From: Hanleya hanleyi
Taxonomy: Eukaryota > Mollusca > Polyplacophora > Lepidopleurida > Hanleyidae
NCBI GenBank assembly: GCA_036873755.1
Contig: JAVTVY010037093.1
Coordinates: 1 to 64,000 of the forward strand
Length of the DNA stretch: 64,000 nt
Direction of reading: 5' to 3'
The notes beneath the pieces were generated by a model. The model did not search any database. It was not told the origin of the DNA and saw only the letters and a list, made by a program, of their open reading frames with translations. Made by a program: the position numbers and the translations under genes. This document shows, one piece after another, positions 1,785 through 37,546 of the stretch (position 1 is the stretch's first letter; every line of letters starts with the position of its first letter).

Positions 1785-2165
1785 TATTTTGCCATCAGCG
1801 CAGTTTTTCTCATTTGCGTACACTTCGCCATCCATAAGATGGCTTGCGAATCGTGTGTCTCCATTATCGCGGAGCGATATCCAGTGCTTTACCGGATTCT
1901 GTTCGGCCTTCATCCGGCGGAGAACAGACCCGAGAAATCTGATAAATTACAGGTTTTCATACGACTTCTGAAACAGATATTGCCTGGGCTTACAGAATAT
2001 ATAGGTATGTATAACTTTCGTATCATCCAAGAGGTGTGGTGGATCTGAAATTTTGAACAAGTATTTCATCACATGACTCGAAAATGGCGAGTTACGTTGG
2101 GGTTACGTCGGTAGACTTTAGCTGATTGGCTGACGAAGTCACGCGGTATTGATTGATGGAAATTC
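1785..2165 (+). repeat. Dispersed repeat, copy A, segment left of the 10.7-kb insertion
   Basis: Nearly identical to about 37097-37450. It continues on the far side of the inserted element at 12913-13006, which matches 37451-37546. The last six bases (2160-2165, AAATTC) are the left copy of the target duplication of the 10.7-kb element. The segment includes the exon-like reading frame at 1839-2004. Confidence 0.85.
1839..2004 (+). CDS. Exon-like ORF of unknown function in a dispersed repeat, copy A
   Basis: The reading frame begins at an ATG in good context (AAGATGG) and runs about 55 codons to a strong donor (AG/GTATGT at 2005-2010), which it would leave in phase 1. The product begins MACESCVSII and is otherwise unremarkable: no domain, no membrane segment. 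The second copy at 37124-37289 keeps the ATG, frame and donor but differs by several amino-acid changes and no stops. It may be the first exon of a repeat-encoded protein or of a multicopy host gene, and I do not recognise it. The 10.7-kb element is inserted about 160 bp downstream, inside what would be the intron. Low confidence that it is expressed. Confidence 0.3.
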
Positions 2166-2212
2166 TATGATGGCCGATAGGGTCCATCGCTGCGTGCGTT
2201 TATTTTGTGGCA

Positions 2213-2867
2213 TGCGAAGGGGCGAAGGGGCGAAGGGGCGAAGGGGCTATGCGAAGGGGCGAAGGGGCTATGCGAAGGGGCGAAGGCGCGATGCGATGCA
2301 AAAATAGCGATGCGAAGCGGCTATGCGAAGGGGCGAAGGGGCTATGCGAAGGGGCGAAGGCGCGATGCGAAGGGGCGAAGGCGCGATGCGAAGGGGCGAA
2401 GGCGCGATGCGAAGGGGCGAAGGCGCGATGCGATGCAAAAATAGCGGCTATGCGAAGGGGCGAAGGGGCTATGCGAAGGGGCGAAGGGGCTATGCGAAGG
2501 GACGAAGGGGCTATGCGAAGGGGCGAAGGGGCTATGCGAAGGGGCGAAGGGGCGATGGAGCGATGGAGCGATGGAGCGAAGGGGCGATGGAGCGATGGAG
2601 CGAAGGCGCGATGGAGCGAAGGGGCGATGGAGCGAAGGGGCGATGTAATACGTCACTAGACTTGGATTTGCGCATGTCTGAATGCGAAACCGGAAGGCGA
2701 AGGGGCGAAGGCGCGATGGAGCGAAGGCGCGAAGGGGCGATGGAGCGATGGAGCGAAGGGGCGATGGAGCGAAGGGGCGATGGGGCGAAGGGGCGATGGA
2801 GCGAAGGGGCGATGGAGCGAAGGGGCGATGGAGCGAAGGGGCGAAGGGGCGATGGAGCGAAGGGGCG
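2213..2867 (+). repeat. GCGAAGGGG/GCGATGGAG satellite, left arm
   Basis: Nine-base units (GCGAAGGGG, GCGATGGAG, GCGAAGGCG, GCTATGCGA variants) fill 2213-2644 and 2693-2867. A unique spacer (about 2645-2692) is itself repeated after the second block: both spacers contain GGATTTGCGCATGT. Long open frames across it (for example a 194-codon one) are translations of a stop-free 9-mer and should not be called genes. Confidence 0.9.
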
Positions 2868-2939
2868 ATGTGACGTCACTGACCTGGATTTGCGCATGTT
2901 TGAATGACAACGAGGGTTATTTGGTCCGTGTAACACTTG

Positions 2940-3080
2940 ACAATTCAGCTTTTCATCTTGCAAAATTGAAAGTAGAAAGATGGAAAGCTCTACATCGCTC
3001 TCCGTGTTCGAGCTTTCCATCTCGCAAAATTGAAAGTAGAAAGATGGATAGCTCAACATCGCTCCCGTATTCCAGCTTTC
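2940..3080 (+). repeat. Two-copy ~62-bp tandem repeat (mirrored at ~12030-12150)
   Basis: The unit containing GCAAAATTGAAAGTAGAAAG occurs twice in a row, ending with ACATCGCTC. The same pair is present in reverse complement in the right arm. Confidence 0.7.
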
Positions 3081-3619
3081 CAAAATGAGTTTATGTCATA
3101 TAGAAATACGAGAGCGATACTTTATTAAAATTGATCTGGTTTCTCCAAACTTACAACATTTGCATTTACGACAAATGTATGCGTGCACCTTGCACAGTTC
3201 AATTTTCGTGTGTTTTTTTTGGTTTCGCAAAATCAAAAATTGAAATTTGATCGTCAATGAGATTACAAAAACAAAAAACGAAAATTGAAATTTGTCAGTC
3301 AATTTTCAATTTTCGTTTATGTTTGTTTGATTGTTTGTTTGTTCGTTTATTCACCAGATAAAACATATGTACAGTAAAGTTGAAATTTATACACATACAT
3401 CATGGAAATCTGTCGGGATGAAAACCCCAAAGGGCTTGTAATGTCCCAAGTAATATAAAAATGAATATTTAAAGACAGATTTATACTGGATTTAGATAAA
3501 CAAAACTGGGTGAAGATTAAGTATAAATTCGGTGAATAAACAGAAATCATAAATGAACGATGTGCATTTGTTTGCCATCATATTCCTGAGTCGGTGAGAG
3601 CCTTATACATTAAGTAAAT

Positions 3620-4075
3620 ATTCTTTCAGTTTTGATTTGAATAGTGATATGGATTGACATGACTTTATGGCTGACGGCATCTTGTTCCATTCTTTTGGAG
3701 CAATTCTTTTGGAGCAATGATTTTAGGAGTATGTAAAGAAAGATTTGTCCGATAGAAAGGTCGATATAAATTATACAAATGACCACGCGTAGGGTAGGCG
3801 TGTACCTGGAACTGTCTCGTAAAATAATTTTGAAATCGAACTGGAAACAAACTCGAATTTAGAAGAAATTTATGGGCAAACTGGAGAGTGATCATGAGGT
3901 AAAGGTTCAGTTCTGACAATCTCAGGATCTTGTAGGAGGCAAACAAAGGCGCAGTGTGCTCAAGTCTAGAGCTCAGTGAAATAATTCTGACGACTCTCTT
4001 CTGCAGTCAAACAAGTGTATGAAGATGACTCGGATAAGTATTAGACCATACCACATTGCAATAGGATATATACGG
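3620..4075 (-). pseudogene. Non-LTR retrotransposon (LINE) RT C-terminal fragment, left arm
   Basis: Read on the minus strand, the translation shows features typical of the C-terminal end of LINE reverse transcriptases: LQKRVVRIISL, then HTAPLFASYKILRL, then NYFTRQFQVHAYPTRGHLYN and TPKIIAPKE. The frame is broken near the end, where AATTCTTTTGGAGC is duplicated (about 3695-3718) and shifts the reading. The RT catalytic part is absent. It is a passenger inside the palindromic element, mirrored at 11058-11496. Which LINE clade cannot be decided from this tail. Confidence 0.75.
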
Positions 4076-4762
4076 ATAAATCAAAGAATAATAAAGAATT
4101 TTGCTTCACGCAAAAATGAAAATCAAATATTGAAAATTGCCTCGATTTGTCCGTTTTTCGTTTTTTGATTTTAACTTCGACTTATCCATGCTAAGTTCGC
4201 ACGTGGAAGGGTTATGATGTAACTTCCGTTACGACGAGTAGAATAGAAAACGCAAATCGTGTCGTATAAGAGGTGTGGAGCGTGAGAGGCATGTGACCCA
4301 CCAGGCCATCCTCGGGAGACAGTGTATCGATCGATTTGTTAGGGTATCTATACACTGCCTTGGTTAGTTGCCCACAGTAGTTCTGGATAAAAATAGATCA
4401 AGGAGAGTAGTATACAGACGGCATATTGACTCTCATTGACCTGGCGTAAGAATCTGGCGTAGAGGTCAAATGCATTATAGTACCGGCAAAAACCGGCAAA
4501 GGTGTGCGCCGTCTCAAAAAGGACGCCGTCTCATGTGGAGGTCATGTGGAGGTCACGTGATGGTCAAGTGCATGAGGCGTGTATTCCTCTGCAGTTATGT
4601 GGTCTGGCGGTGATGCGGTCTGCCTCCGCGGACAGAAAGTAGTCCCAAACACGTGGGTTTTCGTGAGAATGTTCGGCAATCTTCAGGGCCGGGAGGGGCC
4701 CGTAGTAGACTGATTGGATCGAGTGAGGTGTCAAAGTGAAGCGCTCCTCCAGGACCATCCAG

Positions 4763-5172
4763 TCATGGGTGCATGTAAAATTAGGATTTGTCCCGAAAAT
4801 ATAAAAAGCGGAACACGAACTTTATTCCTACACTAGGGGAAACCCCTATCAACCCTATCCCAAAGGGCTAATATCGGTCCCTGGCTTATCGGGGCCTGCT
4901 GAGAGAGTGGGGGAGTGGGTGTATGTAAAATGAGGATTTGTCCCGAAAATATAAAGGCGGAATACGGACTTTACCGCTACAATAGGGGAAAACCGCTATC
5001 AGCACTATCCTCAAGGGCGAATATAGGTCCCCCGGGCTTATCGGGGCCTGCTGAGAGAGGTAGGGTGGGTGAGTGGGTGCATGTAAATTGAGGATTTGTC
5101 CCGAAATTTAAAAAGCCGAACACGGATTTACCCCTACAATAGGAGAAATCTCCTATCAACCCTATCCCAAGG
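4763..5172 (-). repeat. ~150-bp tandem repeat, ~3 copies, left arm
   Basis: Each unit runs through GGATTTGTCCCGAAA, CTACAATAGGGGAAA, CTATCCCAAAGGGC and TATCGGGGCCTGCTGAGAGA. Three copies are present, the last partial. The matching array in the right arm is longer. Confidence 0.85.
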
Positions 5173-5395
5173 TATAGTCACAGGATATTCATTCACATTG
5201 ACCTTTGACCTCTTGGGGTCAATGGGCGTCAATATACTCTTTAAGTACACAAAAGTCAATGAGTGCAAGCGTACTACTCGGTATCTGGGGTTAGGATGCG
5301 TAGGTGTATGGCGTCACTTCCGGTAGGCGTGAATCGGGCGTGACCCTGGGGAACATGTTTAGACCTGTCTGACCTACATCCGGGTACTTTCCTGT

Positions 5396-5552
5396 GAGTG
5401 AGTGAGTGAGTGAGTGAGTGAATGAGTGTGAGTGAGTGAGTGAGTGAGTGAGTGAGTGAGTGAGGCGTGCCCAACGCCCGTCTTAACGCATGGGCGCACT
5501 AACGATGGTGAGTGAGGGAGTGAGTGAGTGAGTGAATGAGTGAGTGGGATCC
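5396..5552 (+). repeat. (TGAG)n microsatellite, left arm (mirrored at ~8720-8830)
   Basis: A GTGAGTGAGTGAG run at 5396-5465 and a second block at 5506-5552 flank the unique stretch with CGTGCCCAACGCCCG. In the right arm the same blocks are CTCACTCA runs and are shorter. Confidence 0.9.
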
Positions 5553-5759
5553 GGCTGGACTAATGTATTGTCCGTTTTCATGATTTTGCGCATGCGCAGT
5601 CTGGTTGTAGTATAGAAAGCAGGCATTTTGTGGATTCGTGGAGGTTTGTTGAGTGATTGAGGGACCATACCTGGTCAAATGGACCGTGTGGGGTATCAGT
5701 TTTACATCCAGGTCCTCATCTTACATTTAGGAGTAGTATAGAACGCCACAATTTTGGGG

Positions 5760-5890
5760 CCACGAGCTCCGAGCTTCGAGCTCCCGCCTACCTCATCCCC
5801 GAGCTCCGAGCTCCCGACTACTCCATCTCCGAGCTCCGAGCTCCCGTCGTTACGCCTTAACACCTGTCGTTACGCCTTAACGCCCTAGCA
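5760..5890 (+). repeat. GAGCTCCGAGCTC repeat followed by CGTTACGCCTTAACGCC repeats (mirrored at 8385-8510)
   Basis: Short GAGCTCCGAGCTCCC units are followed by copies of a CGTTACGCCTTAACGCC motif. The second motif recurs at the centre of the palindrome (6786-7340). Confidence 0.7.
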
Positions 5891-6209
5891 TAACGCCGTG
5901 ACGCCATGATATACACAGATGAAAGAAAAACAACAACAACAAGGATGAGAGATGAGTGAACAACAACAACAACATGGTTTTTTTCATATGGTTTATTCTC
6001 ACCTCCAGAATATCATACCCACGCAGGGGGAGCCGCGTTGGGTATGTTTACAATTCAAGAAGACTCTTGTCCAATCAGAGGCCGCCATTTGGCGCTGTAT
6101 CAGTCATATTCGTTCTTGCCCGTTACTGCGTTAGATGTATTCTCGGCTGCTCTTGTCCAATCTGAAGTCGCCGTTTCAGAAACTTTCACCTTTGCTCGGT
6201 GTGACCTAA

Positions 6210-6723
6210 TCGTCGTCGGACAGGGCTGGATATTGTTCGGGCAGCATGTCCTGAAAGAGTTGTTTGCGCATCCTGATCGCATTTTCCAGGGCCTCAGTGG
6301 GTGGCAGCCCCATATCCTGTTCCAAGTGACCCTTGATCTTCATGATGGACCTGTGCGTGGGTCGCCTTTCATTTCAAGCGATAGTAAGGTATACTGTTCA
6401 TAGATCGCCATGGCTATTTTCCTGATGTAGGGGCGCATTTGGGTGTACGCCTGTTGTAAGTTATCCTGTCCGGCGTTCTCGATCGCTGCAGCATGAGTAT
6501 TGATAGCTGCTGTCACAATACGATCCCAGAAGGTAGGTTCTGCCTCACTTTCCTGGGATGTAGGCTAATTATCTGAGGTCAAGCTCTCCGTATCAGTGGA
6601 TAGACTCTCATCAATCTCTGTATCGGCTTCTTGTGCCTCGGAGTCTTCAATCCCATGTATATTTTTCTCGTGTCGCATCATATCGTAACGTCTGGTGAAC
6701 GTGCGTTGGCAAGTATAAGCCAT
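6210..6723 (-). pseudogene. Small C2H2 zinc-finger protein, left-arm copy (broken)
   Basis: On the minus strand an ATG at 6723-6721 lies about 45 bp after a TATA box. The product begins MAYTC and continues into TFTRRYDMMRHEKNIHG, a C2H2 finger in which both His are kept. A 9-base in-frame deletion removed the second Cys. An acidic Ser/Thr/Glu stretch (ESLSTDTESLTSD) follows, then a stop at 6565. Beyond it the frame resumes in degraded form (IRKIAMAIYEQYTLL) until a one-base deletion near 6353 shifts it. The C-terminal part has a basic/acidic helical look. The lesions differ from those in the right arm. A nuclear DNA-binding role is only inferred from the finger. Confidence 0.65.
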
Positions 6724-6768
6724 ATTGACGGTTGAACGTCCACCGTGCGTGTTTTGGCAATACACTTG

Positions 6769-6776
6769 TTTTTATA
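6769..6776 (-). promoter_or_regulatory. TATA box of the left-arm zinc-finger gene
   Basis: On the minus strand this reads TATAAAAA and lies 46 bp before the ATG at 6723. With 7441-7448 it makes a pair of divergent promoters facing away from the palindrome centre. Confidence 0.55.
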
Positions 6777-7440
6777 GACAGTAACGTCCGTCAACGCTTA
6801 GCTTAACGCTTCAACACCCTGGTGAACTAACTCAGAAGCCCTGATTTTCACCAATACATCGAAATGCAGTGACGCCCGTCAACGCCCGTCGCTACGCCTT
6901 AACGCCCGTCTCAACGCCCGTCAACATCCGTCGTTACGCCTTAACGCCCGTCACAATCACTTAACGCCCTATCTTTACGCCTCAACGCCCGTCCCAGTGC
7001 CTTAACGAGCGATAAAGGGGTTTTGGAAGACGATTAACCTTTGAACAGGTTCAACGGTCACTTTCGGTCACGTGGTCAAACGTCACTTCCGGTCACGTGA
7101 CCGAAAGTGCAGTCAGAGTTCAAAGGTTAATTGTCCTCCAAAACCCATTTATCGCTCGTTATGGCGCTGAGACGGGCGTTAAGACGTAAAGATAGGGCGT
7201 TAAGGCGTAAAGATAGGGCGTTAAGGCGTAAAGATAGGGCGTTAAGGCATTGAGACGGGCGTTAAGGTGTAACGACGGGTGTTGACGGGCGTTGAGATGG
7301 GCGTTAAGGCGTAACGACGGGCGTTGACGGGCGTCACTGCATTTCGATGTATTGGTGGCAATTCCATGAAAATCAGGACTTCTGAGCTAGTTCACCAGGG
7401 CGTTGAAGCGTTAAGCTAAGCGTTGACGGGCGTTACTGTG
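6777..7440. repeat. Palindrome centre with ACGCCCGT-type repeats
   Basis: Between the two divergent TATA boxes lie many copies of CGTTAAGGCGTAACGACGGGCG-like motifs (read from the right side) and their complement on the left. At the very centre GGTCACGTG and CACGTGACC flank a 19-nt loop (7075-7093). CACGTG E-box-like cores occur on both sides. Repeat number differs between sides. Confidence 0.75.
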
Positions 7441-7448
7441 TATAAAAG
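7441..7448 (+). promoter_or_regulatory. TATA box of the right-arm zinc-finger gene
   Basis: TATAAAAG lies 46 bp before the ATG at 7494, which allows a short leader. The mirrored box is kept in the left arm, although the rest of the gene has decayed in both. Confidence 0.6.
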
Positions 7449-7493
7449 CAAGTGTATTGCCAAAACACGCACAGTGGACGTTCAACCGTCAAT

Positions 7494-8072
7494 ATGGCTT
7501 ATACTTGCTCTGAGTGCGAACGCACGTTCACCAGACGTTACGATATGGTGCGATACGAGAAAAATATACATGGGGTTGAAGACACCGAGGCACAAGAAGC
7601 CGATACAGAGAGTGATGAGAGTCTATCTACTGATACGGAGAGCTTGACCTCAGATAGTCTGCCTACATCCCAGGAAAGTGAGATTGCTGAGAGTCTATAT
7701 ACTGATACGGAGAGCTTGACCTCAGATAGTCAGATTACATATCAGGAAAGTGAGGCAGAACCTACCTTCTGGGATCGTATTGTGACAGCAGCTGTCAATA
7801 CTCATGCTGCAGCGATCGAGGACGCCGGAGAGGATAACTTACTACAGGCGTACACCTAAATGCGCCCCTGCGTCAGGAAAACAGCCATGGCGATCTGTGA
7901 ACGGTATACCTTACTACCGCTTGAAATGAAAGACGATCCCACGCACAGGTCCATCATGAAGACCAAGCGTCACAAGGAAGAGGATATGTGGCTACCACAC
8001 ACTGAGGCCCTGGAAAATGTGATCAGGATGCACAAACAACTCTTTCTGGACATGCTGCCTGACGACGATTAG
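7494..8072 (+). pseudogene. Small C2H2 zinc-finger protein, right-arm copy (split by a stop)
   Basis: The ATG at 7494 follows a TATAAAAG box by 46 bp. Residues 1-30 hold the finger: Cys5 and Cys8 are present, but the first His position is Tyr (MVRYEKNIHG). An acidic region has two tandem copies of ES-L-x-TDTESLTSDS (about residues 35-80), followed by a segment with FWDRIVTAAVNTHAAA. The frame stops at TAA 7857-7859 and continues directly in the same frame to 8072. The left arm has CAA at the equivalent codon, so this is a nonsense mutation and not two genes. The C-terminal segment (EALENVIRMHKQLFLDML) is probably helical. I recall mollusc and cnidarian predicted proteins of similar layout but cannot name the family. 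Confidence 0.7.
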
Positions 8073-9068
8073 GTCTCATCGAGCAAAGGTGAAAGTTTCT
8101 GAAACGGCGACTTCTGATTGGACAACAGTAGCCGAGAATACATATAACGCAGTTACGGGCAAGAACGAATATGACTGATACAGCGCCAAAGGGCGGCCTC
8201 TGATTGGACAAGAGTCTTCTTGAATTGCAAACATACCCAACACAGCTCCCCCGGCGTGGGTATGATGTACTGGAGGGGAGAATAAACCATATGAAAAAAG
8301 CATGTTGTTGTTGTTGTTATTCTCTCATCTCTCATCCTTCTTGTTTTTGTTTTTCTTTCATATGTGTATATCATGACGTCAAGGCGTTATGCTAGGGTGC
8401 TAAGGCGTAACGACAGGCGTTAAGGCGTAACGACGGGAGCTCGGAGCTCGGGGATGAGGCAGGCGGGAACTCGGAGCTCGGAGCTCGGAGCTCGGAGCCC
8501 CAAAATTGTTGCTTTCTATACTACTCCTAAATGTAAGATGAGGACCCGGATGTAAAAGTGATACCCCACACGGTCCATTCGACCAGGTATGATCCCTCAA
8601 TCACTCAACAAACCACCACGAATCCCCAAGATGCCTGCTTTCTATACTACGACCAGACTGCGCATGCGCAAAATGATGAAAACGGACGATACATTAGTCC
8701 AGTCGGATCTCACCTACTCACTCACTAACCATCGTTAGTGCGTCCATGCGATAAGACGGGCGTTGGGCACGCCTCACTCACTCACTCATTCACTCAATCA
8801 CACTGACACTCACTCACACACTCTCTCACAGGAAAGTACCCCAATGTAGTTCAGACAGGTATAAACATGTTCCCCAGGGTCACGCCCGATTCACGCCTAC
8901 CGGAAGTGACGTCATGCACCTACGCATCCTAACTCCAGATACAGAGTAGTACCTTTGTGCACTTAAAGAGCATATTGACGCTCATTGACCCCAATAGGTC
9001 AAAGCTCAATGTGAATGAATATCCTGTGACTATACTTTGGGATAGGGTTGATAGGAGTTTTCCCCTAT

Positions 9069-9711
9069 GGTGGTCCTCCACAGTTTCGTAGTAATGGCCC
9101 CTAATTTCATAATACGATAGACTGCCCGTGTTCTGCTGCATCATAATTCTTCTTGTCTTCTTAATAGCTTATATCTATAATACCATCCTATTCAGCATTA
9201 TCAACGCTTCAAACGAGCACGAGCAGATCGATGGCTGGCTTCGTCTACACGGTGATCGGGATCATGGAGTAAATTTTGTCCTGCCTCAGTTATGCCCCTT
9301 GGGTGTACCTAAAAATCCGTACTCATTTACGGGAAGAAAATCTGACAAAAAATGGGCAGGTTGACCCCCACATTTTTTTGCCTTTTTAAGTTGAGACCGG
9401 GCATGGTAACGTGAGTAAGAAGTTTAATTGAAATCGCTCTTACAGATTTTTCTGGAAATTGAGCCAAATTTGGCCATTTTTCGACATTTTAAGGGGGTTT
9501 CTAGGAAAAATGAAGAAAGCTTGGAGGGGAATGTTTGAGATTCATTTTTATATATCATAGCAGTGCTACATCTTAAAATAATAGCTTAATCTTGCTCTTT
9601 CAGAAAATATATACATATAAGTGACTTGGGTTGAAGAGTTTACGACAACTGGTGGCCGAAAAACGGACCAATGGTCTAATCCTTGCTCAATGGAAGAATC
9701 CCTGGAGTGCA
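9069..9711. mobile_element. 643-bp insertion in the right arm only
   Basis: Absent from the equivalent site in the left arm (about 5143). It is flanked on both sides by CCCTAT (9063-9068 and 9712-9717), while the left arm has a single copy of this site. The six-base duplication marks it as a transposition event younger than the palindrome. I see no clear terminal inverted repeat. A 78-codon frame inside (9128-9364) has no recognisable similarity. Confidence 0.75.
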
Positions 9712-10395
9712 CCCTATTGTAGGGGTAAAGTCCGTGCTCCGCTTTTTATATTTTCATGACAAATCCTCAATTTACATGCACCCACTCACCCACCCTACCT
9801 CTCTCAGCAGGCCCCGATAAGCCCGGGGGACCGATATTCGCCCTTTGGGATAGGGTTGATAGAGGTTTTTCCCTATTGTAGGGGTAACGTCCGTATTCCG
9901 CCTTTTATATTTTCGGGACAAATCCTCATTTTACATACACCCACTCCCCAACTCTCCCAGCAGGCCCCGATAAGCCAGGGACCGATATTAGCCATTTGAG
10001 TTAGGGTTGATAGGGGTTTTCCCCTAGTGTAGGGGTAAAGTCCGTGTTCCGCTTTTATATCTTTTCTGGAGAAACTTTTACATGCACCCACCCATGCACA
10101 CAGAACCCGATAAGCCCGGGGACCGATATTCGCCCTTTGGGATAGGGCTGATAGGGGTTTTCCTCTATTGTAGGGGTAACGTCCGTATTCCGCCTTTTAT
10201 ATTTTCGGGACAAATCCTCATTTTACATAATCCCACTCCCCAACTCTCTCAGCAGGCCCCGATAAGCCAGGGACCGATATTAGCCATTTGAGTTAGGGTT
10301 GATATTGGTTTTCCCCTAGTGTAGGGGTGAAGTCCGTGTTCCGCTTTTTATATTTTCGGGACAAATCCTAATTTCACATGCACCCACCCATGACT
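9712..10395 (+). repeat. ~150-bp tandem repeat, 4-5 copies, right arm
   Basis: Reverse complement of the 4763-5172 array with additional units. CCCTATTGTAGGGG-type and GCCCCGATAAGCC-type motifs recur about every 150 bp. The extra units explain part of the arm-length difference. Confidence 0.85.
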
Positions 10396-11057
10396 GGATG
10401 GTCCTGGAGGAGCGCTTCACTTTGACACCTCACTCGATCCAATCAGTCCACTACGGGCCCCTCCCGCTCGTGAAGATTGCCGAACATTCCCACGAAAACC
10501 CACGTATTTGGAGGCAGACCGCATCACCGCCAGACTGCATCACTGCGGAGGAATACATGTCCCATGCACTTGACCATCACGTGACCTCCACATGACCTCC
10601 ACATGAGACGGCGCACACCTTTGCCGGTTTTTGCCGGTACTATAATGCACTTGACCTCTGCGCCAGATTCTTACGCCAGGTCAATGAGAGTCAATATGCC
10701 GAGTATACTACTCTCCTTGATCTATTTTTATCCAGAACTACCGTGGGCAACTAACCAAGGCAGTGTATAGATACCCTAACAAATCGATCGATACACTGTC
10801 TCCCGAGGATGGCCTGGTGGGTCACATGCCTCTCACGCTCCACACCTCTTATACGACACGATTTGCGTTTTCTATTCTACTCGTCGTAACGGAAGTTACA
10901 TCATAACCCTTCCACGTGCGAACTTAGCATTGATAAGTCGAAGCTAAAATCAAAAAAACGAAAAATGGACAAGTCGAGGCAATTTTCAATATTTGATTTT
11001 CATTTTTGCGTGAAGCAAAATTCTTTATTATTCTTTGATTTATCCATATATATCTTA

Positions 11058-11496
11058 TTGCAATGTGGTATGGTCTAATACTTAGCCGAGTCATCTTCAT
11101 ACACTTGTTTTACTGCAGAAGAGGGTCGTTAGATTTATTTCACTGAGCTCTAGACTTGAGCACACTGCGCCTTTGTTCGCCTCCTACAAGATCCTGTGAT
11201 TGTCAGTACTGAACCTTTACCTCAGGATCACTCTCCAGTTTGCCCATAAGTTTCTTCATAAATTCGAGTTTGTTCCAGTTCGATTTCAAAATTATTTTAC
11301 GAAGCAGTTCCAGGTACACGCCTACCTTACGCGTGGTCATTTGTATAATTTATATCGACCTTTCTATCGGACAAATCTTTCTTTACATACCCCTAAAATC
11401 ATTGCTCCAAAAGAATGGAACAAGGTGCCGTCAACCTTAAAGTCATGTGAATCCATATCACTATATCAAATCAAAACTGAAAGAATATTTACTTAA
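11058..11496 (+). pseudogene. LINE RT C-terminal fragment, right arm
   Basis: Mirror copy of 3620-4075. The frame 11200-11496 runs through to the natural end: it reads TPKIIAPKEWNKVPSTL and finishes with a Lys/Glu-rich tail, the classical WN-x-L/V-P motif at the end of LINE ORF2. The upstream part (11058-11200) has stops and shifts relative to the left arm. No catalytic motifs are present. It is the better of the two copies for family assignment. Confidence 0.8.
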
Positions 11497-12242
11497 TGTA
11501 TAAGGCTCTCACCGACCCAGGAATATGTTATATGGCAAACAAATGCACATCGTTCATTTATGATTTCTGTTTATTCACCGAATCTATACTTAATCTTCAC
11601 CCAGTCTTGTTTATCTAAATCCAGTATAAATCTGTCTTTAAATATTCATTTTTATATTACTTGGGGCATTACAAGGCCTTTGGGGTTTTCATCCCGCCAG
11701 ATTTCCATGATGTATGTGTATAAATTTCAACTTTACTGTACATATGTTTTATCTGGTGAATAAACGAACAAACAAACAATCAAACAAACATAAACGAAAA
11801 TTGAAAATTGACTGACAAATTTCAATTTTCGTTTTTTGTTTTTGTAATCTCATTGACGATCAAATTTCAATTTTTGATTTTGCGAAACCAAAAAAAACAC
11901 ACGAAAATTGAACTGTGCAAGGTGCACGCATACATTTGTCGTAAATGCAAATGCTGTAGGTTTGGAGAAACCAGATCAATTTTAATAAAGTATCGCTCTC
12001 GTATTTCTATATGACATAAACTCATTTTGGAAAGCTGGAATACGGGAGCGATGTTGAGCTATCCATCTTTCTACTTTCAATTTTGCGAGATGGAAAGCTC
12101 GAACACGGGAGCGATGTAGAGCTTTCCATCTTTCTACTTTCAATTTTGCAAGATGAAAAGCTGAATTGTCAAGTGTTACACCGACCAAATAACCCTCGTT
12201 GTCATTCAAACATGCGCAAATCCAGGTCAGTGACGTCACATC

Positions 12243-12857
12243 GCCCCTTCGCTCCATCGCCCCTTCGCTCCATCGCCCCTTCGCTCCATCGCCCCTTCGC
12301 CCCATCGCCCCTTCCCTCCATCGCCCCTTCGCCCCATCGCTCCATCGCCCCTTCGCGCCTTCGCTCCATCGCGCCTTCGCCCCTTCGCCCCTTCGCCCCT
12401 TCGCCTTCCGGTTTCGCATTCAGACATGCGCAAATCCAAGTCTAGTGACGTATTACATCGCCCCTTCGCTCCATCGCCCCTTCGCTCCATCGCGCCTTCG
12501 CTCCATCGCTCCATCGCCCCTTCGCTCCATCGCTCCATCGCCCCTTCGCCCCTTCGCCCCTTCGCATAGCCCCTTCGCCCCTTCGCATAGCCCCTTCGTC
12601 CCTTCGCATAGCCCCTTCGCCCCTTCGCATAGCCCCTTCGCCCCTTCGCATAGCCGCTATTTTTGCATCGCATCGCGCCTTCGCCCCTTCGCATCGCGCC
12701 TTCGCCCCTTCGCATCGCGCCTTCGCCCCTTCGCATAGCCCCTTCGCCCCTTCGCATAGCCGCTTCGCATCGCTATTTTTGCATCGCATCGCGCCTTCGC
12801 CCCTTCGCATAGCCCCTTCGCCCCTTCGCATAGCCCCTTCGCCCCTTCGCCCCTTCG
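12243..12857 (-). repeat. CCCCTTCGC satellite, right arm
   Basis: Mirror of the left-arm satellite: blocks at 12243-12404 and 12455-12857 separated by the same unique spacer in reverse complement. Block lengths differ slightly from the left arm, showing independent copy-number drift after the palindrome formed. Confidence 0.9.
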
Positions 12858-12906
12858 CATGCCACAAAATAAACGCACGCAGCGATGGACCCTATCGGCC
12901 ATCATA

Positions 12907-13006
12907 AAATACCCTCCTGCAGTTGCCGGAATTAGGCTGAACATGGATACACACGATCCCAGGGTCAGTCTTACCGCGTATAGATGACCGAGATGGTTAC
13001 AGGTTG
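12907..13006 (+). repeat. Dispersed repeat copy A, segment right of the insertion
   Basis: Begins with the right target duplication AAATAC (12907-12912). From CCTCCTGCAG onward it matches 37451-37546 almost base for base until the copies diverge after GGTTACAGGTTG. Confidence 0.9.
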
Positions 13007-13139: not shown

Positions 13140-16100
13140 TACTTTTCTGAAGAGGTGGAATGAAGACGGCACTTTGGGTATAATACTTTCTCACAGCGGT
13201 AGACTGAAGTATCATCAGCGGTGAAATGAAGACGGTAGTTTCAATATTATACTTTTGCTCAGCGGTAGATACGGCACTTTGGAATTGATAGCCTTGTCCT
13301 TTTCCTCAGCGGTGGAATGCAGACGGTGGTTTGAATAGTCTCCCTTGCTTTAATTAATGGTGTGCTATTTGGGACCACTTGATTCATGAGCTGAGGAGGA
13401 TTGAAGATGGCTGTTTGGAGGTCATCATTTGTATAAAGCTTATCAAGAGAATAGATTGCTTACTTTTTCATCAGCGGTGAAATGAAGACGGTAGTTTGAA
13501 TATTATACTTTTGCTCAGCGGTACATACGGCACTTTGGATAGTGTTATTATATAGCGGCAGATTGAGACGGTGGTTTCATAGCCTTCTCCTTTTCCTCAG
13601 CGGTGGAATGGAGCTGGTGGATTGAATAGTCTCCCTTGCTTTGAAGCACTTTTTCATCAGCGATGGAATGAAGACGGTAGTTTGAATATTACACTTTTGC
13701 TCAGCGGTACATACGGCAGTTTGGATAGTGTTATTTTTTTTAGCGGTAGATTGAGACGGCGGTTTGATAGCCTCCTTTTTCTCAGCGGTGGAATGGAGAC
13801 GGTGGTTTGAATTGTCTCCCTTGCTTTGAAGCAGTTTTTCTTCAGCGGTGCAATGAAGACGGTAGTTTGAATATTATACCTTTGCTCAGTGGTACATGTA
13901 GATACGGCAGTTTGGATAGTATTATATTATTTAGCGGCAGATTGAGACGGTGGTTTGATAGCCTTCTCCTTTTCTTCAGCGCTGGAATGGAGGCGGTGGT
14001 TTGAATAGTCTCCCTTGCTTTGAATCACTTTTTCCTCAGCGGTGGAATGAAGACGGTAGTTTGAATATTATACCTTTGCTCAGTGGTACATGTAGATACG
14101 GCACTTTGGATAGTATTATATTATTTAGCGGCAGATTGAGACGGTGTTTTGATATAGCTTTCTCCTTTTCCTCAGCACTGGAATGGAGACGGTGGTTTGA
14201 ATAGTCTCCCTTGCTTTGAAGCAGTTTTTCCTCAGCGGTGGAATGAAGACGGTAGTTTGAGTATTATATTTTTACTCAGCGGTAGATACCCCACTTTGGA
14301 TAGTATTAATTAGTTAGCGGCAGATTGAGACGGTGGTTTGATAGCCTTCTCTTTTTCCTCAACGGTGGAATGGAGACGGTGGATTGAATCGTCTCCCTTG
14401 CTTTGAAGCAGTTTTTCCTCAGCGGTGGAATGAAGACGGTAGTTTGAATATTATATTTTTGCTCAGCAGTAGATACGCCACTTTGGATAGTATTATTAGT
14501 TAGCGGCAGATTGAGACGGTGGTTTGATAGCCTTCTCCTTTTCCTCAGCGGTGGAATGGAGACGGTGGATTGAATCGTCTCCCTTGCTTTGAAGCAGTTT
14601 TTCCTCAGCGGTGGAATGAAGACGGTAGTTTGAATATTATACTTTTGCTCAGCGGTAGATACGGCACTTTGGATAGTATTATTAGTTAGCGGCAGATTGA
14701 GACGGCGGTTTGATAGCCTCCTCCTTTTTCTCAGCGGTGGAATGGAGACGGTGGTTTGAATCGTCTCCCTTGCTTTGAAGCAGTTTTTCCTCAGCGGTGG
14801 AATGAAGACGGTAGTTTGAATATTATATTTTTGCTCAGCGGTAGATACGGCACTTTGGATAGTATTATTAGTTAGCGGCAGATTGAGACGGCGGTTTGAT
14901 AGCCTCCTCCTTTTTCTCAGCGGTGGAATGGAGACGGTGGTTTGAATCGTCTCCCTTGCTTTGAAGCAGTTTTTCCTCAGCGGTGGAATGAAGACGGTAG
15001 TTTGAATATTATATTTTTGCCCAGCGGTAGATACGGCACTTTGGATAGTATTATTAGTTAGCGACAGATTGAGACGGTGGTTTGATAGCCTTCTCCTTTT
15101 CCTCAGCGGTGGAATGGAGACGGTGGATTGAATCGTCGTCTGCCTTGCTTTGAAGCAGTTTTTCCTCAGCGGTGGAATGAAGACGGTAGTTTGAATATTA
15201 TACTTTTGCTCAGCGGTAGATACGGCACTTTGGATAGTATTATTAGTTAGCAGCAGATTGAGACGGCGGTTTGATAGCCTTCTCCTTTTCCTCAGCGGTG
15301 GAATGGAGACGGTGGTTTGAATAGTCTCCCTTGCTTTGAAGCACTTTTTCCTAAGCGGTGGAATGAAGACGGTAGTTTGAATATTATACCTTTGCTCAGC
15401 GGTAGATACGGCACTTTGGATAGTATATTATTTAGCGGCAGATTGAGACGGTGGTTTGATAGCCTTCTCCTTTTCCTCAGCGGTGGAATGGAGCTGGTGG
15501 ATTGAAGAGTCTCCCTTGCTTTTAAGCACTTTTTCATCAGCGGTGGATTGAAGACGGTAGTTTGAATATTATACTTTTGCTGCGCGGTACATACGGCTCT
15601 TTGGATAGTGTTATTATTTAGCGGTAGATTGAGACGGCGGTTTGATAGCCTCCTCCTTTTTCTCAGCGGTGGAATGGAGACGGTGGTTTGAATCGTCTCC
15701 CTTGCTTTGAATCAGTTTTCCTCAGCGTTGGAATGAAGACGGTAGTTTGAATATTATATTTTTGCTCAGCGGTAGATACAGCACTTTGGATAGTATTATT
15801 AGTTAGCGGCAGATTGAGACGGCGGTTTGATAGCCTTCTCCTTTTCCTCAGCGGTGGAATGGAGACGGTGGTTTGAATAGTCTCCCTTGCTTTGAAGCAC
15901 TTTTTCCTAAGCGGTGGAATGAAGACGGTAGTTTGAATATTATACCTTTGCTCAGCGGTAGATACGGCACTTTGGATAGTATATTATTTAGCGGCAGATT
16001 GAGACGGTGGTTTGATAGCCTTCTCCTTTTCCTCAGCGGTGGAATGGAGCTGGTGGATTGAAGAGTCTCCCTTGCTTTTTAGCACTTTTTCATCAGCGGT

Positions 16101-16735
16101 GGATTGAAGACGGTAGTTTGAATATTATACTTTTGCTGAGCGGTACATACGGCTCTTTGGATAGTGTTATTATTTAGCGGTAGATTGAGACGGCGGTTTG
16201 ATAGGCTCCTCCTTTTTCTCAGCGGTGGAATGGAGACGGTGGTTTGAATCGTCTCCCTTGCTTTGAATCAGTTTTTCCTCAGCGGTGGAATGAAGACGGT
16301 AGTTTGAATATTATATTTTTGCTCAGCGGTAGATACAGCACTTTGGATAGTATTATTAGTTAGCGGCAGATTGAGACGGCGGTCTGATAGCCTTCTCCTT
16401 TTCCTCAGCGGTGGAATGGAGACGGTGGTTTGAATATTATACCTTTGCTCAGCGGTAGATACGGCACTTTGGATAGTATTATTATTTAGCGGCAGATTGA
16501 GACGGTGGTTTGATAGCCTTCTCCTTTTCCTCAGCGCTGGAATGGAGACGATGGTTTGAATAATCTCCCTTGCTTTGAAACACTTTTTCCTCAGTGGTGG
16601 AATGAAGACAGTAGTTTGAATATTATACCTTTGCTCAGCGGCAGATACGGCACTTTGGATAGTATTATATTATTTAGCGACAGATTGAGACGATGGTTTG
16701 ATAGCCTTCTCCTTTTCCTGAGCGGTGGTACAGTC
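13140..16735 (+). repeat. 185-197-bp satellite, about 18 copies
   Basis: GAATGGAGACGGTGG recurs every 185-197 bp. Each monomer is made of four sub-units of about 45-60 bp, each starting with a form of CAGCGGTGGA (CAGCGGTGGAATGGAG, CAGCGGTGGAATGAAG, CAGCGGTAGATACGGC, TAGCGGCAGATTGAG). It is therefore a higher-order repeat that grew from a shorter ancestor. The 60-67-codon frames that recur (starting MNSLPCFEALF) are a by-product of monomers whose length is near a multiple of three. Confidence 0.95.
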
Positions 16736-25640: not shown

Positions 25641-26033
25641 AAAGCTGTCAGTAGCTGGAGTGTTCCTCGCTTGACCTCACCAGCCAGTTCCCGCGGAAAA
25701 CAGCAGGGGTTATGAAAGTCACGGTCGGTGAGTTTGGTAACAATCCGGTTTTCATCGGCATTTATGTTTCCCTCTCAGTTCAAGTGAGCTTACCGTTTTG
25801 TTAACGTCATAATAGGCTATACAATTTTATTAAGTGTTTAGGACAAATCAGCCACTCGTCAAGTAAAAAACAGTTCAAGAGAAGGTCGATATATGTGACC
25901 GCGTGAGTGAAATTGAGCCCACATATACCATTTCATCTCATCAGTGGAGCAGTGAAACTTTCCGTTCCGATATATTCACATTTGGTGGCACATTTTCCCT
26001 GTTGAAAGTTGAAGAGTTGAAGGTCATAGCAGA

Positions 26034-27071
26034 ATGTCGTTGCTGCGGTACGTGGTCCTGATTTTGTGGATGTACCGATACCACTCTATGTACACAGAAG
26101 GCCAACGGACGGATACCAGACCTTCTGTGAGAATTTCTGACTTTACCATAAACACTGATCTACCATTTCAAGATACAGTTTATGAGGTTGGGGATTATGC
26201 TTGCGGAAGAGCAAATTTCTGCAATTCTTCTGTCGCCAAATACCCATACGAATATTGCTTTGACTGCAAACCCTGCAAATGCGACGAGAATTGTTTTCAT
26301 TTCGGCGATTGTTGCCCAGATTTGCTGTTCCGAGATTCTGTTCAAGAGAGTAGGCCCACACTCAATTTCCCGCACGTGTCATGTGAGAAACGTTATCCCA
26401 GATGGCGGGAATCTAGGCAAGAGCCTTATTTGTTCATGGTGACAAAATGTCCGAATGATTTTGCAGCAGACAACAGTGTGAAAACTAAATGTGAGAAAGC
26501 CATAGTTTCGGATTTTGAACAAGCACAGCCAGTGTCAGGTGTCCAATCTCAGCTGACCTATCGGAATAAATTCTGCGCAGTTTGTCATGGTCGCTTATAC
26601 CAATCATGGAGAGTTCAAGTTGAATGCAGAAATACTGATTCGCTAAATTCGGCTCCAGGTAAAAACGAGTTATGGAAAATGGTTTTGAACGACCATACGT
26701 GTACAATTAAAAACTTTCCTCCGAACGATGTGAATATAAGGAACTGTTTTGGGGATCCGATCGGACGTTGCAATGTTTCTGGGAGATGGGAAGCAAAAAA
26801 TGAATATATTGAGACATTATGTGGAATGTATAGCCACCCAGTGGAATATGACAGCTCTCTTTACAAAAACGTATTTTGCGCAGTTTGTAACGGGCAAAAC
26901 CTTAATAGGGACGAAGAATGCAGTTTTCATCCAGTTGATCGGGCCGAAAGGACTTACCCTCTCAATGTGCTGATTGATTTCAATCCCAAACCCAAACCTC
27001 TGGATCAAGTTGAAACTCTGTCGGAAATAGGGAAGAATTGCAATGTTACAGAAATATACAACCCATTTTCG
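26034..27071 (+). CDS. SMB-domain family B GPCR, exon 1 (ectodomain)
   Basis: This exon encodes residues 1-346 of an adhesion/Methuselah-like receptor. The ATG opens a hydrophobic signal peptide (about residues 1-20, with LLRYVVLILW). Residues 57-94 form a Cys-rich somatomedin-B-like module with the hallmark CKCDENCFHFGDCCPDL. Further paired Cys motifs follow: LTYRNKFCAVCHG (about residue 180) and YKNVFCAVCNG (about 280). Several N-x-S/T sites are present. The exon ends at a consensus donor, TCG/GTAAGT, after a whole codon (phase 0). Reading on would add about 20 residues and stop at 27131. The paralogue at 50291 shares all these motifs. The ligand is unknown; the protein should sit in the plasma membrane with this part outside. 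Confidence 0.9.
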
Positions 27072-27264
27072 GTAAGTTCTGGTCCACTGGTAACATATAA
27101 GTGCATGTTAGAGAGTTTAGATTCATACTGAGTATTTGGCGAATTGCTGGAAAGCGTATAGCTGAAGAAAATGACATAGCATGCCTGTGCAGTGAATTCG
27201 TGGACTTGTTTGAATGTTAAATATTGAGCGTAACCCAACACTAAAGTGGAAACCTTACCCCGTG

Positions 27265-31480: not shown

Positions 31481-32034
31481 CAGGTATGAATAAAAGCGTA
31501 TACCCGAGATACAACACATATCGCGAATCGTTAGATTCTTGATATGTGATTTAGAATATAGGTTAACCAGAAGACTATACTTTGAAGTCATGTGGCTCTG
31601 TCAGTATGTCGGCACCTCTTCCCACTTCCCTTATATGAGTTGTAATTAAACCAAATTCCCCCCTTTTGGCCTGACCTCACGTGTGCAATGACGTCGTTTC
31701 GCGCTTTTCACGGCGAGGAGTTCAATCTCGTGATCTTAGTTGCAAAAAAAAACCATTGCGGCGCAAGGTGTACACAAACAAGATGTACAACTAAAGCTGT
31801 ACACCATTTGTGAGTTTGTAAAATTAAAAAAAACTCCCGTTATTCGAACAGTGTTAAAATCACACCTTGACATATTTGGAGATCAAAGCAGGCTTGAGAA
31901 TTCAGGTAAAACTTGTGTCAAGGTAAAGAATGGAACTTTAGTGTAGTGTTCAACTTGATATGTGAAGATGTGACGGTGCAGACTGATAATGTACTATACC
32001 TGTTTAATAATGTCATATATTTTCTTTCACCCAG

Positions 32035-33705
32035 AGCCAGTGCGAGAAGTTGAAGTGCTCCCCACGAAGAATTCTATCGGATGGGGTCTGCGAGACGTTT
32101 TACGCCTCCACTAAAAGTCTCGGACACTCCTTCTCAATTGTTGTGAAATTTTCCGAGAATCTAATTCCGTCTGATTGGTACAAGCTAACTGATCAGTATC
32201 AGGAAAGACTTCGCCAAGAGTTTGCAATGTATCGCCCGTTCGTTTTCTCTTTATTGGAGATGACGAGCTATAGAAGATCTCTTCAAGTCAAGGACGACAC
32301 AGGACTACTTTTAGTCACAGAAGAGATAACGGGAATGAAGGTCAGTGTCAGAATGGTATCAGCATCGGCTCACCCTTTGGCCGACATGGAAGAGAGTATC
32401 AAGGCAGTCCAGTCAATCTCTTTCCCTATTCAGGTCGGGTCAAATACCGTGACCTTGACCTCAATACCTGTCGTCTGCGCAGACAGTCGAGAAGGACTTC
32501 CAGAAGGCGAGCCTGGGATGGGATTCGTTATCGCTGGACTCCCAGATGAGCTTAACTGCTTCTCTGGCGATTGTCTTACTGATGTGATCTACGAACCCGT
32601 TCAAAACACGCTAGACTATCCCTATTTAGAATTCAACCTCACAACCTCAAATTTCACTTTCCATGTCGAGAATTCAAGTTTAGTGTTTAAAAACCAAACT
32701 ATGAACCTGAATTCGTCAGGCTACGTGATTTGTGAAGACAATATAAAATTGAGTTCAACAGTTTTACAGCATGTACACAAGGAAATCGCAGGTTTCCTTT
32801 CCAGATGTACTGTTCCTGAAGAGGGCGCCACTACGGCCCTAACTATCGTATCCATAGTATGCATCGCGTTGTCCCAGCTATGTCTTCTGATCACTTTTCT
32901 CATTTACTGTATTCTTCCGCAACTGCGAACACTACCAGGTAAGAATACGATGACGTTAATTTTTCATTTGTTTTGTGCACAGCTTTTCTTCCAGGTTGGC
33001 ATTCGAATGACGTACAATGAAACTGTGTGCAGGGCCATGGGTGTCCTTATTCACTATCTCTGGATGTCATCGTTTGCCTGGATGGCCATGTGTGCCTATC
33101 ATATGTACGCTGTGTTCACGCAAATTGCTACAAACAGATTTTTCAACAGAGAAAATGAAATGAAACAGATCATACGCTTTATAGTGGGATGCAACGGGTC
33201 AGCTTCAGTTGTAGTGCTTGCCTGTATTGTATACCATCTAGGAACCACTCAAGGAGAACAAATAGGATACGGCGGAAGAATTTGTTTCCTTAATGAACCA
33301 ATTGACATCGGTATTTTCTTCGCCTCTCCGCTAGGTGTCGTGCTGATATTTAATACGTTTTGTTTCGTTCGAACTGTAATGGCGATAAGAAGTGTTCCCG
33401 ATATGAAAAATGCCAAAAACAAGGACAACAGAAACCACATGCTGGTGTATATCCGCTTGTCTGCTCTCCTGGGATTCACTTGGATATTTGGGTTTATCGC
33501 CGCAGCTATCCAAAGTGAACCATTATGGTATGTTTTCGTCATCCTTAATGGATTACAGGGAGTGTTCATATTCATTGCATACTGCGTTAATAGAAGGACT
33601 TGGGATATGGTGACCAAGCGCTTTGGCAGCAAGCGCTCTGCAAAGTATACGGACGGGGATAGACGTAGAAGCTCCGCTTCGAACACAATCTCAACCACCC
33701 TTTAG
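32035..33705 (+). CDS. SMB-domain family B GPCR, exon 2 (7TM)
   Basis: Encodes residues 347-902. There is no ATG at its start (codon 32050 is TTG), consistent with an internal exon. After an ectodomain stalk (SQCEKLKC) a 7TM region begins with ALTIVSIVCIALSQLCLLIT. Family B marks follow: LPGKNTMTL after TM1, HYLWMSSFAWMAMCAYHMY in TM3, LLGFTWIFGF in TM6 and NGLQGVFIFIAY in TM7. The C-terminal tail is short, basic and Ser-rich. No convincing GPS cleavage motif precedes TM1, unlike classical adhesion receptors but like Methuselah-type ones. The stop codon TAG lies in the first unit of a minisatellite. It signals presumably through heterotrimeric G proteins; the ligand is unknown. Confidence 0.93.
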   Translation, partial: SQCEKLKCSPRRILSDGVCETFYASTKSLGHSFSIVVKFSENLIPSDWYKLTDQYQERLRQEFAMYRPFVFSLLEMTSYRRSLQVKDDTGLLLVTEEITGMKVSVRMVSASAHPLADMEESIKAVQSISFPIQVGSNTVTLTSIPVVCADSREGLPEGEPGMGFVIAGLPDELNCFSGDCLTDVIYEPVQNTLDYPYLEFNLTTSNFTFHVENSSLVFKNQTMNLNSSGYVICEDNIKLSSTVLQHVHKEIAGFLSRCTVPEEGATTALTIVSIVCIALSQLCLLITFLIYCILPQLRTLPGKNTMTLIFHLFCAQLFFQVGIRMTYNETVCRAMGVLIHYLWMSSFAWMAMCAYHMYAVFTQIATNRFFNRENEMKQIIRFIVGCNGSASVVVLACIVYHLGTTQGEQIGYGGRICFLNEPIDIGIFFASPLGVVLIFNTFCFVRTVMAIRSVPDMKNAKNKDNRNHMLVYIRLSALLGFTWIFGFIAAAIQSEPLWYVFVILNGLQGVFIFIAYCVNRRTWDMVTKRFGSKRSAKYTDGDRRRSSASNTISTTL

Positions 33706-36892: not shown

Positions 36893-37546
36893 ATTATACC
36901 TCATGTAAATTAGTAATGTTTTCCATTGGTTGACGGCCTGTCACGTGTCATTCTACAAATAGTGATGTTCAGTTATGATGCAGTCATATCTTGCCTTACC
37001 GTTGAATAAATGTCATGTACCACGGCAGAGCGTTGAACATGTCATTTGTTCCACGGCGACATCTGCTGGTCCAGCCAGGAGTAACGTCCCATTTGCATTT
37101 GCGTACACTTCGCCATCCATAAGATGGCTTGCGAATCGTGTGTCTCCATTATCGCGGAGCGATATCCAGTACTTTATCGGATTCTGTTCGGCCTTCATCC
37201 GGCGGAGAACAGACCCGCGAAATCTGATAAATTACAGGTTTTCGTGCCACTTCTGAAACAGATATTGCCTGGGCTTATAGAATATATAGGTATGTATAAC
37301 TTTCGTATCATCCAAGAGGTGTGGTGAATTTGGAATTTTGAACAAGTAGTTCATCACATGACTCGAAAATGGCGAGTTACGTTGGGGTTACGTCGGTGGA
37401 CTTTAGCTGATTGGCTGACGAAGTCACGTGGTATTGATTCATGGAAATTCCCTCCTGCAGTTGCCGAAAGTAGGCTGAACATGGATACACACGATCCCAG
37501 GGTCAGTCTTACCGCGTATAGATGACCGAGATGGTTACAGGTTGGT
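36893..37546 (+). repeat. Dispersed repeat copy B (empty site of the 10.7-kb element)
   Basis: Corresponds to 61-225, 1785-2165 and 12913-13006. At 37445-37450 a single AAATTC joins the sequences that in copy A are separated by 10.7 kb. It also lacks the 1.55-kb segment present at 226-1784. Confidence 0.9.
37124..37289 (+). CDS. Exon-like ORF of unknown function, copy B
   Basis: Same ATG context, frame and donor (ATAG/GTATGT at 37290) as 1839-2004. Between copies several residues differ (for example NRPEKSDK against NRPAKSDK), and all differences leave the frame open. Retention of an open frame in two diverged copies is mild support for coding, but 55 codons is short. No function can be given. 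Confidence 0.3.

What the first reader, a model, noticed from the sequence alone, without database searches (positions are those of the whole stretch)
2160..12912. A 10.7-kb almost completely palindromic mobile element with a proven empty site
The whole element, not just its ends, is an inverted duplication around a 19-nt loop, with 6-bp target duplications (AAATTC/AAATAC). The same window holds the unoccupied target at 37445-37450. It has no recognisable transposase but carries a promoter-driven zinc-finger frame on each arm. Whole-element palindromes of this size are unusual, and I know of no named family with this content.
Basis: partly seen in the sequence, partly recalled or inferred. Interest (0 to 1): 0.9.

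Follow-up and report, generated by a model that had tools for sequence, protein, structure and literature searches.

The report
Palindromic jumping DNA with twin genes
A 10.7-kb piece of mobile DNA in a large animal-like genome reads almost the same in both directions, has spread as such a palindrome, and appears to belong to a wider set of palindromic elements that carry the same kind of zinc-finger gene once on each arm.

Summary
Bases 2166-12906 (10,741 bp) form a near-complete palindrome (arms 95.1% identical over 4,720 aligned columns, 19-nt loop) with a 6-bp duplication (AAATTC/AAATAC); a related empty site lies at 37096-37544. The 27-bp end occurs 107 times exactly in the 2.48-Gb genome (reversed control 0). 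Copies range from 54 bp to 15.7 kb; 14 of 17 with both ends read show a 6-bp duplication at five or six positions. Left-type and right-type arms are distinct lineages shared between insertions, so the palindrome spread as a unit. No transposase was seen. TA..TA ends plus a 6-bp duplication fit IS3EU/GingerRoot; Maverick integrase is the rival. Both zinc-finger genes are broken here, and the right-arm defects are shared by eight other fetched stretches, so this subfamily spread with a dead gene. Proteins of this zinc-finger family have tens of thousands of first-look candidates here; where two listed best matches share a contig they point away from each other (30 of 30 contigs for one type, 15 of 16 for the other). 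Two such loci read have Maverick end motifs and 6-bp duplications; one was read through and is a palindrome. I read this as a class of gene-bearing palindromic hitch-hikers: a new variant of a known kind.

The parts
2160..2165 (.). left target-site duplication AAATTC
   Evidence: same 6-mer at 37445-37450 in the related empty site
12907..12912 (.). right target-site duplication AAATAC (one mismatch)
2166..7074 (+). left arm (A-type arm)
   Evidence: A-arm clade
7094..12906 (-). right arm (B-type arm), inverted copy with extra blocks, the largest 293 and 649 bp
7075..7093 (.). 19-nt loop, inner stem 16 bp perfect
2166..2192 (+). 27-bp end TATGATGGCCGATAGGGTCCATCGCTG, 107 exact copies in the genome
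12880..12906 (-). 27-bp end, right
2216..2876 (+). subterminal GCGAAGGGGC/GATGGAGC repeats (mirrored at about 12235-12856); limits by eye
   Evidence: (sequence)
3668..4006 (-). remnant that resembles the C-terminal part of a non-LTR retrotransposon protein (resemblance recalled; Pfam gave no match), present in both arms
11200..11496 (+). mirrored copy of the same remnant
6230..6723 (-). zinc-finger gene, left arm, broken (lost Cys, stop, frameshift)
7494..8072 (+). zinc-finger gene, right arm, broken (stop at codon 122, zinc-binding His to Tyr); the same two defects occur in eight other fetched stretches
37096..37544 (+). related empty target site (96-97% identical to both flanks)

Best explanation
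It is one copy of a non-autonomous, foldback-like DNA transposon family that moves as a complete palindrome. An integrase-type DDE transposase made elsewhere in the genome recognises a short end and inserts the element with a 6-bp stagger; the TA..TA ends make an IS3EU/GingerRoot-type enzyme the best candidate. The palindrome is old: a single arm (end, subterminal repeats, a dead retrotransposon-like piece, a zinc-finger gene) was inverted-duplicated once or a few times, most simply by snap-back copying or end-to-end fusion of two copies, which gives a one-ended piece two good ends. The unit then spread while its two arms drifted apart. Internal deletions yield shorter versions down to 54 bp. 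The layout 'one zinc-finger gene per arm, reading outward from the centre' is shared with at least one other palindrome type that has Maverick-type ends. SHOWN: palindrome, ends, 6-bp duplications, multicopy, A and B arms shared between sites, size series, diverging gene pairs, Maverick-like ends at two loci of the second type (one of them read through as a palindrome). INFERRED: the enzyme, the way the palindrome formed, the order of events, and any role of the zinc-finger protein; for this subfamily the protein is not needed from the element itself, since the right-arm gene was already dead when the copies spread.
For: Arms 95.1% identical, 94% of the element self-inverted. 107 exact 27-bp ends, 0 in the control. 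6-bp duplication at >=5 of 6 positions in 14 of 17 copies with both ends read (9 perfect), against 8 of 272 mismatched left/right pairs. A second empty site: the 130-bp copy of C15134 sits inside an arm of another copy, and its joined flanks match the uninterrupted arms of the window element at 4238-4292 and 10826-10880, 55 of 60 bases at 100%. Arm tree of 28 rows: 12 A-arm rows form a clade (98/96); window, L011, L012, L015 and L021 each hold one A and one B arm. Minimal copies with duplications: 54 bp, 106-199 bp. IS3EU: always TA..TA, usually 6-bp TSD; GingerRoot: mostly TA..TA, 6 bp (PMC10045372, passages). Zinc-finger pairs diverge on 30 of 30 contigs with two listed rows and 15 of 16. 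Second type: C39109:827-6384, palindrome 95.2% over 5.41 kb inside L077, two open 297-aa frames, ends AGTAGT..ACTACT, TSD TATACC; C18739, TSD CATCTA.
Against: No enzyme-bearing copy was found: 66 stretches (window, 25 others end sites) list no transposase-like frame of 110 aa or more by eye (of the 52 listed frames ten were scanned with Pfam, all without a match, and a few others). The rve_3 search listed 150 hits, many in long frames such as retroelements have, and by eye none on a contig with a listed exact end. Three of 17 copies lack a matching 6-bp duplication (C6336 and C47744 share a flank, so haplotig or chimeric assembly; C30231 has 5 bp). Five of eight long copies with a duplication have one mismatch in it, six of six short ones none; unexplained. 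The interior of the 15.7-kb copy was not read, only its outer 2.7 kb on each side. How the palindrome arose was not observed. Maverick ends were read at two independent loci only, and the exact 26-bp end of C39109 occurs just 6 times in the genome, so the ends of most zinc-finger pairs are unknown.
Confidence: 0.55

Rival explanations
1. The same palindrome, but moved by the genome's abundant Maverick/Polinton integrase; palindromes form as snap-back products of protein-primed replication, like the inverted-duplication defective genomes known from linear DNA viruses (recalled, no call).
For: A Maverick in the same genome (C6167) has 2.39-kb TIRs starting AGTAGTATAC, an integrase frame with rve above its cut-off, and weak, below-cut-off matches to a viral ATPase and the adenovirus protease. 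Its integrase has 26,885 first-look candidates, the 150 listed ones mostly open and 93-100% identical. A second zinc-finger palindrome type has (AGT)2..(ACT)2 ends and a 6-bp TSD at two loci, the end motif reported for vertebrate Mavericks (PMC8097293, passages). The window arms contain internal AGTAGTATA motifs.
Against: The window family ends are TATGATGG, not AGTAGT. The internal AGTAGTATA at 5732 is not an end in any of the 40 scored copies. The Maverick beside a TATGATGG end in L028 has its own TIRs.
Confidence: 0.22
2. An ordinary long-TIR (foldback) non-autonomous element of some other DDE superfamily with a 6-bp duplication; the zinc-finger genes are passengers and the palindrome has no role.
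For: Foldback-like Galileo, with long internally repetitive TIRs, was later placed in the P superfamily (PMC2775673, passages); the subterminal repeats here are similar in kind. Both genes are dead in the window copy, and the right-arm His-to-Tyr change and stop recur in L009, L011, L012, L013, L016, L018, L019 and L021, so the young copies spread with a dead gene. dN/dS between two open window-type genes is 0.98.
Against: Diverging gene pairs recur in two zinc-finger types. Open frames are common among listed rows (12 of 150 rows with a stop, 27 listed rows), though only best-scoring rows are listed. dN/dS is 0.54-0.56 between second-type genes of two loci.
Confidence: 0.2
3. Assembly artefact: a contig folded back on itself.
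For: Long palindromes assemble badly; some copies here have flanks shared between contigs (L011/L019, L017/L020).
Against: Arms differ by about 5% and by asymmetric blocks. A and B arms are distinct lineages found at several sites. Both flanks of the window copy match one empty-site sequence.
Confidence: 0.03

Closest known systems
IS3EU / GingerRoot DNA transposons
   Same: TA..TA termini and 6-bp target duplications (PMC10045372, passages)
   Different: no transposase seen here; whole-element palindrome; a zinc-finger gene on each arm
Maverick/Polinton
   Same: 6-bp duplication; the second type (C39109, C18739) has the (AGT)2..(ACT)2 end motif of vertebrate Mavericks (PMC8097293, passages)
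   Different: no Maverick gene seen in the window element or in C39109; the window family has other ends
Foldback-like elements such as Drosophila Galileo
   Same: very long, internally repetitive inverted repeats; non-autonomous copies
   Different: [quoted passage not shown] here the duplication is 6 bp and the inverted repeat runs to the centre and includes a gene
MITEs
   Same: short derivatives (54-199 bp) with both ends and a target duplication
   Different: derived from a gene-bearing palindrome of several kb

Membership tests
IS3EU/GingerRoot | TA..TA termini | tested here: met
   TATGATGG..CCATCATA
IS3EU/GingerRoot | 6-bp target duplication | tested here: met
   14 of 17 copies at >=5 of 6 positions
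IS3EU/GingerRoot | IS3-like DDE transposase in the element or in an autonomous partner with the same ends | tested here: inconclusive
   none noticed in the 66 stretches; the rve_3 search gave no hit tied to this end
Maverick/Polinton | (AGT)2 or (AG)3 end motif | tested here: not met
   window family ends TATGATGG; met at two loci of the second type
Maverick/Polinton | 6-bp target duplication | tested here: met
Maverick/Polinton | polymerase, integrase, ATPase and capsid genes | tested here: not met
   no such frame in the window element
Foldback-like | long, internally repetitive inverted repeats | tested here: met
Drosophila FB / MULE | target duplication of about 8-11 bp (recalled) | tested here: not met
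   6 bp

The most novel reading that the evidence does not exclude
Gene-bearing whole-element palindromes are a distinct class of hitch-hikers. A zinc-finger cassette, kept in two diverging copies by the palindrome, has attached itself to the ends of at least two different integrase systems (an IS3EU-like one and Maverick) and has multiplied to very high copy number. Inverted duplication is its way of turning a one-ended fragment into a mobile unit, and the zinc-finger protein, made in trans by intact copies, is an active helper.
Probability: 0.25. Interest if true: 0.82.

Novelty: new variant of a known kind. Interest (0 to 1): 0.6.

Why it matters
Long palindromes are thought to be hard for cells to keep (recalled), yet here palindromes of 2 to more than 10 kb spread as units. 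The family offers a natural size series from 54 bp to 15.7 kb for asking how little of an end an integrase needs and how palindromes form. A search of the held papers for six phrases meaning non-autonomous or miniature Maverick/Polinton found none, so Maverick-ended palindromes with a gene on each arm may be new, with the limit that most subscription papers are not held.

Tried and rejected
Rejected: that the Maverick in L028/L029 is the autonomous partner of the window family. It has its own 2.39-kb TIRs and sits beside a 677-bp remnant of the palindrome family. Rejected: that the inner core (5732-8525) is a nested Maverick-ended palindrome. The AGTAGTATA motif there has no target duplication, and none of the 40 scored copies begins at it. 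Largely rejected: assembly mirror.

Led nowhere: zinc-finger homologues in the 5.8-billion protein set (window type: 9 candidates, none at E<=0.001; second type: 3 unnamed proteins). The structure model of one of those (alignment of 3 sequences, mean pLDDT 60) gives an all-helical C-terminal domain at 74-91 pLDDT per ten-residue block for residues 121-220, with no PDB fold match (57 at E<=10, none at <=0.001). A search for the end with a different 18th base found 7 places, one of them already fetched and the others not followed. Paper searches showed no such element in the listings; only passages of five papers were read. The shorter end-variant pattern (TATGATGGCCGATB) and a protein-primed polymerase family search did not complete.

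Full report
OBSERVATION. Inverted repeats run almost from end to end. The arms align at 95.1% over 4,720 columns, with the right arm longer by blocks of 293, 649, 72 and 42 bp. Inverted self-matches cover 94.0% of the element. The loop is 19 nt at 7075-7093, with a perfect 16-bp stem next to it. The element proper is 2166-12906, between AAATTC and AAATAC. Both flanks match one related empty sequence at 37096-37544 (96.1% over 355 bp and 97% over 100 bp).

FAMILY. The window lies in G000, 2.48 Gb in 52,793 contigs, unnamed. A 301-bp end query gave 604 first-look candidates, of which 40 were scored. The 27-bp tip matches exactly 107 times (100 places listed), its reversed control 0 times. I read 20 stretches of up to 10 kb, eight more and 40 sites of the exact-tip list at about 1.2 kb or less. 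Of those 40, 33 continue into the same arm sequence (32 with more than 95% of the read stretch covered, one with 91%). Seven do not: six carry about 106-199 bp of the end region, five of them closed by a right end and a 6-bp duplication and one (L038) without a readable right end; one (L064) breaks off at 28 bp.

ENZYME. In 66 stretches of the family (window, 25 others, the 40 end sites) I listed frames of 110 aa or more outside the simple repeats: 52, none transposase-like by eye. They are zinc-finger frames, their antisense, the retrotransposon-like remnant and unknowns. Ten of them were scanned with Pfam, no match; one L025 frame gave a weak reverse-transcriptase match. The L028 stretch was left out of that list because it holds a Maverick.

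SIZES AND TARGET DUPLICATIONS. In 17 copies both ends could be read. Fourteen have the 6-bp duplication at five or six of six positions: nine perfect, five with one mismatch. Three do not: C6336 (0 of 6), C47744 (1 of 6) and C30231 (5-bp match only). Pairing each left flank with every other right flank gave 8 of 272 at >=5, one of them at 6. C6336 and C47744 share one flank, so haplotig or chimera. Lengths run from 54 bp (27+27 bp, TSD GTAACT) through 106-199 bp, 1.9, 3.4, 3.8, 6.1, 7.2, 7.3, 7.8 and 10.7 kb to 15.7 kb (C7186, TSD CTTTAC; only its outer 2.7 kb on each side were read). Symmetry varies: inverted self-match covers 100% of C30231, 94% of the window copy, 88% of C6336, 77% of C36434, 64% of C15582, 56% of C3516, 54% of C25091 and 20% of C43776. 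So internal deletions that strike one arm are common. The 130-bp copy in C15134 lies inside an arm of another copy; its joined flanks match the uninterrupted arms of the window element at 4238-4292 and 10826-10880 (55 of 60 bases, 100%), a second empty site.

REAL, HERITABLE PALINDROME. A tree of a 700-bp arm segment (28 rows) puts 12 left-type (A) rows in one clade (98/96). Right-type (B) rows fall outside it. Window, L011, L012, L015 and L021 each have one A and one B arm; L010 has two arms outside the A clade; L026 has two A arms in direct orientation; both arms of C7186 fall together (96/85). Only 4 of 25 inner branches are well supported. The A/B split shared across sites means that the palindrome existed before these insertions and moved as a unit. 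The same retrotransposon-like remnant sits in both arms, so it was probably there before the inverted duplication.

GENES. Each arm carries a frame with one C2H2 finger, an acidic linker and a conserved tail. In the window both are broken. The right-arm His-to-Tyr change and stop also occur in L009, L011, L012, L013, L016, L018, L019 and L021 (L011 and L019 may be one insertion), so this subfamily spread with that gene dead. In C15582 (L014) and C18409, which have the same end, a frame is open; one on C44622 is open too but 8.4 kb from the end. Pfam sees only the finger. A protein search for the window type gave 49,885 first-look candidates, 150 scored. Of 16 contigs with two listed rows, 15 have a minus row followed by a plus row; the exception is C48648, both minus. 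For the second type: 21,900 candidates, 150 scored, and 30 of 30 such contigs diverge (C39109 and C7399 are one locus seen twice). The other 90 of those 150 rows stand alone on their contig in the list and say nothing about pairing. Gaps between paired rows reach 9 kb. Twelve of the 150 rows have an internal stop; 27 listed rows do (list cut). Only best-scoring rows are listed, so intactness is overstated, and first-look candidates are not confirmed copies. dN/dS is 0.53 between the two C39109 genes (16 changes), 0.54-0.56 between them and the C17315 gene, and 0.98 between two open window-type genes. Selection is thus not shown for the window type.

SECOND TYPE. C39109:827-6384 (5,558 bp) is a palindrome (95.2% over 5.41 kb within the fetched stretch) with two open 297-aa frames reading outward. 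Its ends are AGTAGTAGATAATGC..GCATTATCTACTACT and its TSD TATACC. Its exact 26-bp end occurs 6 times in the genome, on five contigs, so most zinc-finger pairs must have other ends. C18739 has ends AGTAGTAGAGAAGC, TIRs 98.5% over 194 bp and TSD CATCTA; about 5.6 kb by its end positions, interior not read. PMC8097293 (passages) gives (AGT)2..(ACT)2 ends and 6-bp TSDs for vertebrate Mavericks. A Maverick in G000 starts with (AGT)2 (its own flanks gave no clear TSD by eye), and its integrase is very abundant and mostly open.

WHICH ENZYME MOVES THE WINDOW FAMILY. TA..TA ends and 6-bp TSD match IS3EU/GingerRoot as described in PMC10045372 (passages). The Maverick end motif is absent. No autonomous partner was found, so the family is not filed as a member: it looks like a non-autonomous IS3EU/GingerRoot family. 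Galileo (PMC2775673, passages) is a precedent for a foldback-like element that proved to belong to a known superfamily.

MECHANISM. Most likely: integrase in trans on a short end. A 54-bp copy with a perfect TSD suggests that little more than 27 bp per side is needed, unless that copy shrank after insertion. Palindrome by snap-back copying or end fusion; later deletions. These steps are inference.

VERDICT. Confirmed as a real feature, richer than described, mechanism half-resolved. New variant of a known kind, interest 0.6.

Noticed in passing
G000, target duplications of the window family: Five of eight long copies with a recognisable 6-bp duplication have exactly one mismatch in it, while all six copies under 200 bp are perfect; this seems more than the low divergence between copies predicts. 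Unexplained.
   Followed up: partly
window 13464-16436: A tandem array of about 16 copies of a 186-bp unit begins about 560 bp after the element; further arrays (40-bp and 187-bp units) follow up to 20441.
   Followed up: no
window 4406, 5732, 8517, 10704, 62133, 62290: AGTAGTATA / TATACTACT motifs like the start of the genome's Maverick, mirrored in the arms and repeated near 62 kb.
   Followed up: partly
L028 977-10000 and L029 1-5302 (C6167): A Maverick with long, 2.39-kb TIRs; integrase frame and weak ATPase- and protease-like matches; no polymerase frame noticed in the frame lists, and the polymerase family search did not complete.
   Followed up: no
L026 (C10177), L013 (C43776): L026 holds two A-type arms in direct orientation; L013 has a nearly full arm facing one of about 340 bp.
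   Followed up: no
window 32011-33702 +, 26013-27128 +, 50264-51448 +: Host-like frames: a secretin-family 7-transmembrane receptor (Pfam 7tm_2, 1.4e-20) and two frames that look alike by eye, without Pfam match.
   Followed up: no
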